64,000 nucleotides of DNA, taken from positions 248,001 to 312,000 of the forward strand of contig MAAQ01000012.1 in assembly GCA_002162685.1 (NCBI GenBank), in the 5' to 3' direction. A program made the translations under genes and the position numbers. The notes below the pieces were generated by a model. It was given only the letters and a program-made list of their open reading frames with translations, was not told where the DNA came from and made no database searches. The stretch comes from Flavobacteriales bacterium 33_180_T64. Lineage in GTDB: Bacteria; Bacteroidota; Bacteroidia; Flavobacteriales; Flavobacteriaceae. This document shows positions 4,310 to 24,141 of the stretch, one piece after another (within the stretch, counting starts at the first letter, position 1; each line of letters starts with the position of its first letter).

Positions 4310-6802
4310 TTATTCAATAACCATTTTTTTAGTAACAGATCCTTTTGTGTTATTTATTTTAACAAAGTAAAACCCAGAAGCATAATTAGAAACGTCTATA
4401 GTTGTAGGTTCTGATATTGTTCTATTTTTTGCAAAAAACATCAATTTACCTAAAGCATCATATATTCTAATAGATACATTCTCACTTCTATTCCAACTTA
4501 AGCTAACAGTATCTGAAGCAGGATTAGGATAAATTTTAAAAGATTCTAAATCAAATTCATTTACGCTTAGTGTAGCATCAAACACATCTGAAGTCCATAA
4601 CCCACGACCATAAGTCGCTGCATAAACTTTATCATTAGCTACATTAACTTCTAATTCACTAATAATTACATTTGGTAAACCATTACTAAAAGGTTGCCAT
4701 TCTGAATAGGTGTTATCTATATAATAAACACCATAATTCATTCCTAAGTACAAACCATCTTCTCCGTTATCATGCCACACTAAAGCCTGAGCACTAAAAT
4801 TTGGTAAGTTGAACTTATATGATACCCATGAATTTCCCCCATCATCAGAAACATACACCTTTTGACTCCCCGTTGTAGCAATTGCTACCTTATTTGGATT
4901 TGAAGGATGTATTGCAATAGAATTTATTGAACCAGAAAACCCATTAAGCTGATTCCAAGTTGGGATCACACTTACAAAGCTATTGCTAAACAAGCTAGAA
5001 CCTCTAGAAGCATATTGATAATTACTGTTAGTAGGAGCAATTTTTAAATGATCTAAATTTCCTCCAAAATTTTGTGAAACTGTTGTCCATGTACTTCCGC
5101 TATCGACCGATTTATATACCTGATTATATCCTGCATATATTGTATTAGGAATAATAGGATCTTGTTCAAATGGTGTAATCCAATTCCCTGTATTTGGTGT
5201 TGTAATACCTGTTAAACTCTGACCTCCATCAACAGAGCGATAAAGTGATCCTGATTGAGACGTCCCATATAAAATATTACTATCATTTTTATCTACAAAA
5301 GACTCCATTCCATCTGCGCCAATCCAATCTACCCAATTTCCATTAGCATCCATAACTGACGATCCATTATCTTGTGCGCCTCCAGATACAATTACAGGAT
5401 CTGTTTGACTAATACCTATTTTATAGAATTGTCTAATACCCATCCCTGCTGTTAAATCTTTATAATAACCACTATTTAAAACCGTTGGGTTTTCTGCAAC
5501 ATAAAGACCGCCATCTGTACCAACATACAATTTATCATTAACAAACTTTAAAAGATCTACATCTGCATGACAATACCCAATATTTTGGCCACTTGCATTT
5601 CCTGGAGTCCATTGAGAAGTAATATTAAAACTAAGTCCACCATCAGTTGATCTCCAAGTATTAACACCAGCAATATGCACATCTGAAGCATCATTAGGGT
5701 TTACAGCAATATCCATATCTCTAGGCGCTTGCCCAGAATTAGCATCTCCTGGATCTTCTGAATTTGAACTATAACCAAAATAATTTTTCCCTGTATGATT
5801 TAATTGTGTAAATGGAGAAAAATCAACAGATTTATATAGCGCACCAAAAGCACCACCAGAGGCTTCTAAAACATAAATAACACCAGGGTTATTTGGAGAT
5901 ACTCCAATCATTTTTGGCCCTCCACCAAATCCTCCTGTTGGAACAAAATTTGCACCACCATCAACAGACACGAAAAACGACGTCCCCGATGCATAAACAA
6001 TATTCGTATCACCAGGTTTAAATTCAATATCATAACCAGTTGTTGCACTAGCATTAATTATAGTCCAATTAACACCTGCATTTGTAGATTTATAAATACC
6101 TCCTCCTTGAACAGAGCAGTACATTTTATCTGTATTTGTAGGGTCAATCAAAATTTTATTTACATTACCGCTTCCTGTATCTGCAAGAAGGTTCCATGTT
6201 GCTCCACTATCTATAGATTTAAAAATAGTTCCACTGCTAGAACCCCAATAATATGTTGTATTAACAATAGGATCGATTGTTAATGCAGAAACATTTAAGT
6301 TAGACAAATCATCTGTTAAAACAGCCCAAGTTAATCCGCCATCAACAGATTTCCATACTCCTCCTGTATCAGCACCTGCAATTATATGCATTGGATTTGC
6401 CGCTTCAACATCAACAGATGTTATACGACCTACACCAGGATTCCAACCACTTGTAGCATTCCATGATAAAGGCCCTAATTGTTCCCACGTTCCAACAGTT
6501 GTTCTTGCAGAATCGAAATTTTGATTAAGGTAACTATTAAAATTTTCAAGTTCATTAAAATAAAACTCAGGCGATTTTAGCATCCCATTTTCATCCATAT
6601 TTCTTAAAGCTTGGTATTCCCATCTCTTGTATGGTTTATACCCTTTTCCTCGTTCGGTGCCAACTATATCAAAATGAGATTGAGCAGCAGTTTGAATTTC
6701 AGCAACAGTAAATGTGCCTTGAGATATCATTTGTACATAATCTTGTGCCCAAGTTGTACATACAGATAATAAGAATGTAATTAGTAGATAATAATTTTTC
6801 AT
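4310..6802 (-). CDS. Secreted beta-propeller (sialidase/BNR-like) protein with T9SS type A sorting domain
   Basis: 830 residues. A signal peptide (MKNYYLLITFLLSVCTTWAQ) is followed by many Asp-box/BNR-like blades such as VWKSVDGGLTWAVL, IFKSIDSGATWNLL, IYKSTNAGVNWTII, LYRSVDGGQS, VYKSVDSGSTWTTV and VYVSDDGGNSWVS, consistent with one or two propellers of the Ycf48/VPS10 type. The last 80 residues are a type IX sorting domain (FKIYPNPASDTVSLSW ... VKINNTKGSVTKKMVIE). The protein should be exported by Sec, then moved through T9SS and cleaved or anchored by PorU, which is encoded in this window at 37295. Substrate or binding partner is unknown. Confidence 0.9.
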   Translation of the reverse strand: MKNYYLLITFLLSVCTTWAQDYVQMISQGTFTVAEIQTAAQSHFDIVGTERGKGYKPYKRWEYQALRNMDENGMLKSPEFYFNELENFNSYLNQNFDSARTTVGTWEQLGPLSWNATSGWNPGVGRITSVDVEAANPMHIIAGADTGGVWKSVDGGLTWAVLTDDLSNLNVSALTIDPIVNTTYYWGSSSGTIFKSIDSGATWNLLADTGSGNVNKILIDPTNTDKMYCSVQGGGIYKSTNAGVNWTIINASATTGYDIEFKPGDTNIVYASGTSFFVSVDGGANFVPTGGFGGGPKMIGVSPNNPGVIYVLEASGGAFGALYKSVDFSPFTQLNHTGKNYFGYSSNSEDPGDANSGQAPRDMDIAVNPNDASDVHIAGVNTWRSTDGGLSFNITSQWTPGNASGQNIGYCHADVDLLKFVNDKLYVGTDGGLYVAENPTVLNSGYYKDLTAGMGIRQFYKIGISQTDPVIVSGGAQDNGSSVMDANGNWVDWIGADGMESFVDKNDSNILYGTSQSGSLYRSVDGGQSLTGITTPNTGNWITPFEQDPIIPNTIYAGYNQVYKSVDSGSTWTTVSQNFGGNLDHLKIAPTNSNYQYASRGSSLFSNSFVSVIPTWNQLNGFSGSINSIAIHPSNPNKVAIATTGSQKVYVSDDGGNSWVSYKFNLPNFSAQALVWHDNGEDGLYLGMNYGVYYIDNTYSEWQPFSNGLPNVIISELEVNVANDKVYAATYGRGLWTSDVFDATLSVNEFDLESFKIYPNPASDTVSLSWNRSENVSIRIYDALGKLMFFAKNRTISEPTTIDVSNYASGFYFVKINNTKGSVTKKMVIE

Positions 6803-22235: not shown

Positions 22236-22266
22236 AAGCCATCTCTATTGAGGTGGTTTTTTTGTA
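22236..22266 (+). terminator. Intrinsic terminator
   Basis: Stem AAGCCATCTC / GAGGTGGTTT (with G:T pairs), loop TATT, then seven T. It sits between the hypothetical gene and the MOSC gene. Confidence 0.75.
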
Positions 22267-22276
22267 TTTTTAATCC

Positions 22277-22909
22277 ATGCAAATTATATCAACCAATATT
22301 GCTAAACCAACAACCATTGTTTGGAATGGCAAAAACGTGACAACAGGTATTTATAAAAAACCTACAAAGACAGCTATCTACTTAGGAAAAGAGGATGTGA
22401 AAGATGATGAAGTCACAGATAGGAAACACCATGGTGGCGTGTTTAAAGCCTGTTATTTATTTTCGGCAGATCATTATCCATATTGGAGAAATTTGTACCC
22501 TAACTTAGAATGGACTTATGGCATGCTTGGTGAAAACCTAACGGTTGAAGGTTTAAACGAAAAAGAACTCTGTATTGGAGATATTTATAAAGTTGGAAAT
22601 GCATTAGTACAAATTACGCAACCTAGAGAGCCTTGTTATAAATTTGGAGTGAAATTTGGATCGACAAACGTTTTAAAACAATTTATAGATTATGGATATC
22701 CTGGCACTTATGTTCGTGTTCTCCAAGAAGGCACAGTAAGTATTGGTGACGTATTTAAACTGGTTGAAAAAGCAAAAAATAGCATCACAACATTTCAGTT
22801 TTTTGAATTGTTGTTTTCAAAAGCAAAAAATAAAAACCACATTAGATTAATCCTTAATAATGATGCCTTGCCACAGCGTAAAAGAGACAAAATAAAAGCA
22901 TATCTATAG
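22277..22909 (+). CDS. MOSC-domain protein
   Basis: 210 residues. The MOSC beta-barrel covers about 20-165, with the conserved cysteine in TQPREPCYKFGVKFG (C120), the residue that binds sulfur or molybdenum cofactor in this superfamily. The sequence resembles the YiiM group, which reduces N-hydroxylated compounds; the C-terminal 45 residues (FFELLFSKAKNKNHIRLILNND) are the three-alpha type tail seen in that group. Cytoplasmic. It is transcribed just upstream of the VgrG-like gene (26 nt gap). Confidence 0.88.
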   Translation: MQIISTNIAKPTTIVWNGKNVTTGIYKKPTKTAIYLGKEDVKDDEVTDRKHHGGVFKACYLFSADHYPYWRNLYPNLEWTYGMLGENLTVEGLNEKELCIGDIYKVGNALVQITQPREPCYKFGVKFGSTNVLKQFIDYGYPGTYVRVLQEGTVSIGDVFKLVEKAKNSITTFQFFELLFSKAKNKNHIRLILNNDALPQRKRDKIKAYL

Positions 22910-22935: not shown

Positions 22936-23580
22936 ATGGCAGTTTCTCCTTTATCTAAATCTAACGATATTATACGTTTTGAAATTCTTTCAAATGGAAT
23001 TTCTATACCTGTAACTACTCAAATAATTGCTCTACATATACAACAAGACATAAATAGATTTGATGAAGCTGTAATTACTTTAATTGATGGTTCCGATGGT
23101 AAGAATAGCTTTCCTATTGCTAATTCAAATACTTTTAAACTTGGTAATTCTATTGAAATAAAATTAGGGTATCACGCGAAAATAGATTGTGTCTTTAAAG
23201 GTAAAGTAATCGTGCAAAAACTGATCAATAACTCAGAAGAAGGATCACAACTTCAAATCATTTGCAAAACGGAAGATACTGCAATTTCAAAAGTCCGAAA
23301 AGAAGATTTAGATCGATCAAAATCTCCAGTACTAGAACTCACTTATGGTTATGATGTCATTGAGTTTCAATTACAAATCCATGCCGAAACTCCAAAACGC
23401 GTTGATGGCTTTTTAACGTTTCAAGGCTTTGCAAAAACTAATGTAAATAACATGATTAGCATCAAAGGTTTTGCTGATAAATTCAATAAGAATTGTACTA
23501 TTTCTAAAGTTATTCACCAAGTAAAACATGGCAGTTGGCATACTACTGCTTATGTTGGGAATAATCTTAATAATACATAA
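22936..23580 (+). CDS. Orphan compact VgrG / gp27-like protein
   Basis: 214 residues. Residues 1-115 match the first barrel of the gp27-like part of Bacteroidota VgrG proteins (FEILSNGISIPVTTQIIALHI, DINRFDEAVITLIDGS, ANSNTFKLGNSIEIKLGYH, VFKGKVIVQKL). Residues 130-150 (LELTYGYDVIEFQLQIHAET) and 158-210 (FQGFAKTNVNNMISIKGF, NCTISKVIHQVKHGSWHTTAYVG) match later blocks of the same domain. The intervening central segments, and the whole C-terminal gp5-type OB fold and spike, are missing. No other secretion-tail gene is nearby. It starts 26 nt after the MOSC gene and 3 nt separate it from the next membrane-protein gene. The frame is open with no internal stops, so it looks like a maintained reduced protein, not a fragment. 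Confidence 0.72.
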   Translation: MAVSPLSKSNDIIRFEILSNGISIPVTTQIIALHIQQDINRFDEAVITLIDGSDGKNSFPIANSNTFKLGNSIEIKLGYHAKIDCVFKGKVIVQKLINNSEEGSQLQIICKTEDTAISKVRKEDLDRSKSPVLELTYGYDVIEFQLQIHAETPKRVDGFLTFQGFAKTNVNNMISIKGFADKFNKNCTISKVIHQVKHGSWHTTAYVGNNLNNT

Positions 23581-23583
23581 TAC

Positions 23584-24141
23584 ATGGACATCCCTTTTAG
23601 AGAGAAACTAAATTTTGTAAAAAAATCTATTCGTAAAAACATAGGTCCTTTCCTCATAGGTGTACTATTCATTATGATTGGATGTGTGCTAATGTATTTA
23701 GGCTATTTTACAGAAAACAATCCTTTTTTATTTAAAATAGGTTTCGGTTTTATTTCGTTTGGCGGTTTTTTTTTAATCTACTTTGTCTCTTCAAGTTACA
23801 AGAAGAACTACGAACAAGAACTCACGAAAAAGTATGGCAATCATACAACGGCAATAGTTACTAACAAGCGAATAGAAGACTACTCATATACATCAAATAC
23901 CTTTGAAAATGGAAAAGCCTTACATCATGAAGAATTTTTATACGCTATAGAGTTTGACTTTACTTATAATAACATCAGTTATAGTAACCACTGTTTTTTT
24001 GAAGATAAATCAACTTTTGAAGCCATTACATTAGATACCAAATTACCAATTCAGTTTTTGAGAAACAATCCTAACAAAGTCACATTGAGACGTCAAAAGT
24101 TATCTCATGAATTGGGAATTCCAGAACGCAGGTGTCAGTAA
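23584..24141 (+). CDS. DUF3592-like membrane protein
   Basis: 185 residues. Two membrane segments at about 20-42 and 48-72 (FLIGVLFIMIGCVLMYLGYF, IGFGFISFGGFFLIYFV) are followed by a soluble beta-rich domain (TAIVTNKRIEDYSYTSN ... YAIEFDFTYNNISYSNHCFF ... KLPIQFLRNNPNKVTLR), the layout of DUF3592-type proteins. It begins 3 nt after the VgrG-like gene, so the two are probably cotranslated. No function is known. Confidence 0.72.
   Translation: MDIPFREKLNFVKKSIRKNIGPFLIGVLFIMIGCVLMYLGYFTENNPFLFKIGFGFISFGGFFLIYFVSSSYKKNYEQELTKKYGNHTTAIVTNKRIEDYSYTSNTFENGKALHHEEFLYAIEFDFTYNNISYSNHCFFEDKSTFEAITLDTKLPIQFLRNNPNKVTLRRQKLSHELGIPERRCQ

What the first reader, a model, noticed from the sequence alone, without database searches (positions are those of the whole stretch)
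22936..23580. Orphan compact VgrG-like protein with the spike and mid-domain missing
The 214-residue protein keeps three blocks of the gp27-like part of VgrG (first barrel, a short LELTYGYDVIEF block, and the final FQGFAKTN...SKVIHQVKHGSWHTT block) but lacks the central segments and the entire gp5-type spike. No Hcp, sheath, ClpV, baseplate or toxin gene is within the 64 kb. The frame is open and clean, coupled 3 nt upstream of a DUF3592-like membrane protein and close behind a MOSC gene. This looks like a retained, domesticated tail-tip domain with a new role. That is inference; the motif matches are what the sequence shows.
Basis: partly seen in the sequence, partly recalled or inferred. Interest (0 to 1): 0.75.

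Follow-up and report, generated by a model that had tools for sequence, protein, structure and literature searches.

The report
Ring-only remnant of injection-machine hub
A marine bacterium keeps, as an intact small gene, only the ring part of a protein that normally forms the hub and spike of a phage-tail-like injection machine; the spike is gone, and the few other machine parts found so far lie elsewhere in its genome.

Summary
The 214-aa ORF at 22936-23580 is a compact relative of eCIS spike proteins (Afp8/Alg8/"VgrG"): three collinear blocks match, two internal segments and everything after the gp27-like part are absent. By order and size the kept blocks are the two ring-forming barrels of gp27. 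Four genomes with the compact form were found: three Psychroserpens with the same MOSC-mini-putative membrane protein order, and one of another genus behind htpG. They form one clade (98/97) next to full-length flavobacterial eCIS VgrGs, are open in all four, and are under purifying selection, though evolving fast.

The membrane-protein neighbour is not obligate (9 of 12 genomes have it without the mini).

Best mechanism (inferred): a trimeric ring docking on a tail-tube end as blunt hub, starter or cap. Against one leftover machine: the mini and the scattered sheath/tube seem to come from different eCIS lineages (p-AU 0.03, group chosen after seeing the tree). No ring-only VgrG was found in my literature searches.

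The parts
22936..23580 (+). compact gp27-like protein ('mini-VgrG'), 214 aa
22936..23289 (+). residues 1-118: block corresponding to ring barrel 1 (by order and size to gp27 2-111)
   Evidence: alignments; gp27 domain limits from PMC3004832, passage
23308..23388 (+). residues 125-151: short block, first part of ring barrel 2 (by position to gp27 207-239); weakest link, not significant alone
23395..23559 (+). residues 154-208: last block, rest of ring barrel 2 (gp27 307-368)
   Evidence: weak direct alignment of the full-length family with gp27 299-355
22277..22909 (+). MOSC-domain gene, upstream neighbour in 3 of 3 Psychroserpens carriers
   Evidence: PF03473 E 2.3e-32
23584..24141 (+). putative membrane protein, 185 aa, 3 nt downstream; family also occurs without the mini
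   Evidence: membrane character judged from the sequence, no prediction run
22236..22259 (+). terminator-like hairpin before the MOSC gene (0.8 expected by chance, so weak)

Best explanation
The gene encodes the bare ring of an eCIS hub protein. Shown: it is homologous to the gp27-like part of eCIS spike proteins; both internal segments and the whole spike are absent; the compact form is a supported clade of four proteins, open in all four genomes (two genera) and constrained. Inferred: as in gp27, three copies form a pseudo-six-fold ring of six barrels that stacks on the end of a six-fold tail tube, here as a blunt hub, starter or cap, because the parts expected to face the baseplate wedge and spike are gone. 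In this genome and in P. algicola it is the only gp27-like protein detected, beside an unlinked tube and sheath, which are the natural candidate partners; in the other two carriers the partner would be a tube of the resident, unrelated eCIS.
For: Homology and block order; deletions match the non-ring parts of gp27 in order and size; model pLDDT 82.9, pTM 0.81, best Foldseek matches eCIS spikes at TM 0.81-0.82; one clade 98/97; second-position change 0.25-0.38 against third-position 0.54-0.66 in all six pairs; sheath and tube present in 4 of 4 carrier genomes; no PF04717 in G000 and G004 while 5 of 7 genomes searched have it.
Against: No oligomer or binding was tested. The compact-only structure control failed (pLDDT 33), so the model leans on full-length rows. 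The scattered sheath and tube belong to another eCIS lineage than the mini's nearest full-length relatives. Two carriers (G007, G192) have a complete, different eCIS. Carriage of the mini and of a tube is only weakly associated within the genus (3 of 3 carriers among 10 of 23 tube genomes; chance about 0.07 by my arithmetic). The gene evolves faster than its neighbours. The direct link to T4 gp27 by sequence is weak.
Confidence: 0.42

Rival explanations
1. Domesticated role unrelated to tubes: the barrel fold has been reused as a binding or scaffold protein in the MOSC/membrane-protein operon.
For: Tight spacing with both neighbours in three species (26/2/20 nt before, 3/-4/6 nt after); faster evolution than the neighbours; the scattered sheath/tube come from another lineage.
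Against: The fourth carrier lacks these neighbours; the membrane protein occurs without the mini in 9 of 12 genomes; many residues invariant in the compact proteins are those shared by full-length ones (28 positions).
Confidence: 0.25
2. Decoy or immunity factor: the spikeless ring caps or poisons the tube of a resident, sister-cell or incoming contractile particle so that no working hub assembles.
For: It keeps the tube-facing ring and lacks the spike; two of four carriers have a complete eCIS of another lineage.
Against: Two of four carriers have no detected gp25 or spike; no PADLOC defence family matches (the idea itself would not be in that library).
Confidence: 0.2
3. Slowly decaying remnant without function.
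For: Fast divergence, patchy presence (3 of 23 genomes of the genus), and other CIS parts that are scattered and incomplete.
Against: Open frames in all four at 34-52% pairwise identity with second-position change well under third-position change; near-identical deletions kept in two genera; operon spacing kept.
Confidence: 0.13

Closest known systems
eCIS central spike proteins: Alg8 (7aef_q), Anabaena All3320 (7b5h_AJ), 9rce_F
   Same: gp27-like N-terminal part, same blocks in the same order, same predicted fold
   Different: Here 214 instead of 581-597 residues; both internal segments, the gp5-type mid domain and the spike are absent; not in a CIS cluster
Phage T4 gp27
   Same: Foldseek TM 0.67 (2z6b_D); kept blocks correspond in order and size to the two ring barrels (PMC3004832, passage)
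   Different: gp27 has further domains and a separate gp5 spike; sequence link weak
Wedge-less eCIS-like clusters of G212 (L157), Aureitalea sp. (L051/L158), Aequorivita antarctica (L053)
   Same: No gp25 or gp6/Afp11-like gene in the neighbourhood seen; shortened tape-measure protein
   Different: They keep a full-length VgrG with a PAAR or DUF4280 gene in one cluster

Membership tests
eCIS/T6SS spike protein (Afp8, Alg8, VgrG) | gp27-like N-terminal domain | tested here: met
   (shortened by two internal segments)
eCIS/T6SS spike protein (Afp8, Alg8, VgrG) | gp5-type OB domain and C-terminal spike | tested here: not met
   ORF ends after the gp27-like part; no PF04717 anywhere in the genome
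eCIS/T6SS spike protein (Afp8, Alg8, VgrG) | encoded in a cluster with tube, sheath and baseplate genes | tested here: not met
   window and 20 kb beyond it without other CIS hits; sheath and tube on another contig
eCIS/T6SS spike protein (Afp8, Alg8, VgrG) | trimeric ring that docks on the tube | not testable with these tools
   no complex prediction or binding assay available
Complete eCIS in the own genome | sheath, tube, Pvc16 cap, gp25 and spike domain all present | tested here: not met
   sheath and tube present; gp25 best E 0.71, below cut-off (32); Pvc16 none (33); PF04717 none (40). Afp11, Afp12, PAAR, tape measure and ATPase were not searched genome-wide
Pseudogene | broken frame or loss of codon-position bias | tested here: not met
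   four open frames, change at position 2 below position 3 in all six pairs
Prophage tail gene | homologues in phages | tested here: not met
   no tblastn match in 50,697 phage records; a pattern-based scan of viral contigs gave no relative; more distant phage hubs share the fold

The most novel reading that the evidence does not exclude
A dismantled contractile machine that still works without baseplate wedge and spike: tube, sheath and a ring-only hub, encoded at unlinked loci, assemble into a blunt tube-sheath device, the ring-only hub having been recruited from another eCIS lineage. The same family shows clusters without wedge genes and with shortened parts, as if such machines were being reduced repeatedly.
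Probability: 0.15. Interest if true: 0.85.

Novelty: new variant of a known kind. Interest (0 to 1): 0.58.

Why it matters
If right, it is a natural minimal form of the ring that adapts a three-fold spike to a six-fold tube, a part that in the relatives seen here is embedded in proteins of 547-632 residues, and a 214-residue test object for what the ring alone can do. It also points to reduced or scattered contractile systems that strict catalogues would pass over: the eCIS catalogue of PMC8213781 required at least four linked genes and then at least ten core genes per operon (methods passages).

Tried and rejected
Rejected: fresh truncation or assembly artefact; phage gene (no match in phage records; viral-contig scan found 32 pattern matches, none a relative); plasmid gene (two partial matches covering 50% and 57% of the query at 33% and 26% identity); the membrane protein as obligate partner; mini and scattered sheath/tube as pieces of one ancestral cluster (weakly; p-AU 0.032, 0.015 and 0.041 for three groupings, uncorrected, and the groups were chosen after seeing the tree); PADLOC families. 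Led nowhere: compact-only structure prediction (pLDDT 33); hhalign of the compact family against T4 gp27 (probability 0.8%, E 0.07); promoter scan (7 sites, 10 expected); RNA folding at the start codon (z 0.22).

Literature: I saw search listings and passages of PMC8894135, PMC8213781 and PMC3004832; no paper was read whole. No paper naming the 9r9h/9rce structures was found.

Rows left out: partial hits with odd frame lengths in G123, G315, G214 and G279 and in G487, G631, G668, G708 and G745 were not inspected, so further compact forms among them are not excluded. For the VgrG tree I dropped identical sequences, hits under 200 aa and three partial rows (L076, L077, L079). Tube and sheath trees use 20 and 15 rows that I picked from the hits. 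Gene names such as acetyl-CoA synthetase, MFS transporter, htpG, DEAD-box helicase and the order-based label 'cap adaptor' are my own recognition, not from a call.

Full report
What is there. The ORF at 22936-23580 is open, starts with ATG and encodes 214 residues. Pfam, NCBIfam and PHROGs do not match it, but phmmer against PDB sequences finds three eCIS-type spike proteins, 9rce_F (E 8e-23), 7aef_q (2.7e-20) and 7b5h_AJ (3.6e-12), through collinear blocks; in 9rce_F query 1-122, 128-152 and 154-208 lie on 1-123, 197-221 and 295-349. The short middle block is not significant on its own. A profile of the four compact proteins finds the same three (E 4e-33 to 1.5e-22) and Pvc8 (E 0.001). Against a profile of eleven full-length N-terminal parts it aligns over 208 of 214 columns with E 2.2e-38.

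What is missing. In the numbering of a full-length relative (L053) the three Psychroserpens proteins lack residues 114/119-185 and 217-288 and everything after about 351; the fourth lacks 114-174, 211-284 and everything after 346. A review of the T4 tail gives the two homologous ring-forming barrels of gp27 as residues 2-111 and 207-239 plus 307-368 (PMC3004832, passage). The kept blocks agree with these in order and size, so the protein looks like gp27's ring without its two insertions and without the spike. The direct sequence link to gp27 is weak: for the full-length family only the last block aligns (gp27 299-355, P 0.027, probability 1.8%), and for the compact family not significantly.

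Structure. AlphaFold2 with an alignment of 11 rows (3 compact, 8 full-length N-terminal parts) gives pLDDT 82.9 and pTM 0.81, with a low-confidence stretch at 115-124 where the first segment is missing. Foldseek's best PDB matches are 7b5h_AJ (E 3e-16, TM by query 0.81) and 7aef_q (7e-16, 0.82), then other CIS spikes, phage hubs and gp27 (2z6b_D, TM 0.67); the named best viral models are mostly tail or baseplate proteins. The control with three compact rows failed (pLDDT 33), so the model leans on the full-length rows.

Distribution. The own genome has one copy. In the genus search 6 of 23 genomes match: three compact (G000 own, G004, G007) and three full-length. That search missed the divergent 553-aa VgrG of G007, so absence of full-length VgrG is judged by PF04717, which was searched in seven genomes only. 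In a family sample 56 of 397 genomes match, four of them compact, the new one being G192 of another genus. In a phylum sample 72 of 395 match and only the own copy is compact; odd-length partial hits were not inspected (see Tried and rejected). The tree of 70 rows and 206 columns makes the four compact proteins one clade (98/97), next to full-length VgrGs L021-L026 and L053 with modest support (88/71). G192's compact protein has a long branch.

Locus. In all three Psychroserpens carriers the order is MOSC, mini, 184-185-aa putative membrane protein, with a 121-135-aa gene upstream and a DEAD-box helicase gene downstream, both further away in G007. The gaps are 26, 2 and 20 nt before the mini and 3, -4 and 6 nt after it (G000, G004, G007). 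In G192 the mini lies directly behind htpG. The membrane-protein family matches in 12 of 397 genomes, in 9 of them without the mini beside it.

Selection. Change at codon positions 1/2/3 is 0.38/0.25/0.55 for G007-G004; over six pairs position 2 is 0.25-0.38 and position 3 is 0.54-0.66. Third positions are near saturation, so no dN/dS is given. The gene is constrained but changes faster (34-52% identity) than MOSC (74-77%), the membrane protein (57-62%) and the scattered tube (73-94%).

The rest of the machine. The own genome has an intact sheath (525 aa) and tube (155 aa) side by side between an MFS-like gene and a 207-aa gene followed by an acetyl-CoA-synthetase-like gene on contig C7; the sheath's closest solved relative is 9r9h_T, E 1.2e-103. 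No PF04717 spike domain was found (5 of 7 genomes searched have one), no gp25 above cut-off (best E 0.71; 4 of 6 genomes are above it) and no Pvc16 (5 of 6 have one). P. algicola (G004) also lacks gp25 above cut-off and PF04717; it has Pvc16, a 276-aa gene, sheath and two more genes on one contig and the tube alone on another. Afp11, Afp12, PAAR, tape measure and ATPase were not searched genome-wide, and both assemblies are drafts. G007 and G192 have complete eCIS clusters of other lineages. A tube gene occurs in 10 of 23 Psychroserpens; in six of these (G000, G004, G005, G009, G010, G018) no full-length VgrG matched, and in five of these six the tube sits beside the same MFS-like gene, with the acetyl-CoA-synthetase-like gene on the other side. 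The three mini carriers of the genus are all among the ten tube carriers; by my arithmetic chance gives this with probability 0.07.

Same ancestry? The scattered tube and sheath group with eCIS of G149, G223, G631 and G212 (99/99 for nine tube rows, 100/100 for six sheath rows). VgrGs of those systems form a clade apart from the mini's neighbours, and holding the mini together with them is disfavoured (p-AU 0.032), with the caveat that the grouping was chosen after seeing the tree and that long branches are present. So the mini is probably not the VgrG left over from the same cluster. This weakens, without excluding, the idea of one scattered machine.

Reduced clusters. I annotated 17 loci by phmmer (15 distinct places); 3 of 15 have no gp25 and no gp6/Afp11 hit: G212 (L157: sheath, two tubes, VgrG, PAAR, short tape measure), Aureitalea sp. 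(L051/L158: cap, sheath, two tubes, VgrG, ATPase, DUF4280-type gene) and Aequorivita antarctica (L053: the same but no sheath). Their 167-176-aa protein matches only the last third of the tape-measure family where tested (L157 and L053; PF19268 positions 298/299-463). Only the neighbourhood was seen.

Mechanism. Shown: homology, absence of spike and inner segments, one supported clade, persistence, constraint. Inferred: a trimeric pseudo-six-fold ring docking on a tube end. The gp27-like domain of Alg8 is described as a 3-to-6-fold adaptor, with the spike below the tube initiator (PMC8894135, passages). Without the parts expected to meet wedge and spike, such a ring would be a blunt hub, starter or cap, used productively (0.42) or to block particles (0.2). 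A tube-free role in its operon (0.25) and decay (0.13) remain.

Novelty. My searches showed no ring-only VgrG or scattered wedge-less CIS of Flavobacteriaceae in titles and abstract starts; most subscription papers and preprints are outside that library, so this is weak evidence of novelty.

Noticed in passing
L157 7255-12764 (G212); L051 2054-10021 (Aureitalea sp. L0-47); L053 4457-10848 (Aequorivita antarctica): eCIS-like clusters with tubes, VgrG and PAAR/DUF4280 but no gp25 or gp6/Afp11-like gene nearby; a tape-measure protein cut to its C-terminal third in the two tested; the Aequorivita cluster also has no sheath.
   Followed up: partly
L070 9085-11155 (own genome, contig C7): Intact sheath and tube genes alone between housekeeping-like genes.
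   Followed up: yes
L073 9380-9844; L152 10200-10667; L153 9683-10141; L156 9816-10277: Solitary tail-tube gene at the same chromosomal site in four other Psychroserpens; in G018 and G010 it sits next to a calcineurin-like phosphoesterase gene.
   Followed up: partly
L090 9666-10193; L091 9485-10054; L092 9562-10140: Solitary Pvc16 cap-like genes in G007, G006 and G003, apart from their eCIS clusters.
   Followed up: no
L093 9408-9872; L155 9694-10152; L154 9496-9942: Further solitary tube-like genes in G006 and G010, two of them divergent and one like the second tube protein of eCIS.
   Followed up: no
L072 6545-9179 (P. algicola): Two unassigned genes (582 aa without Pfam match, 277 aa coiled-coil-like) directly behind the scattered sheath.
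   Followed up: no
window 4313-6802: 830-aa ORF with sortilin-like repeats and a secretion-system sorting domain; ordinary, unrelated to the finding.
   Followed up: yes
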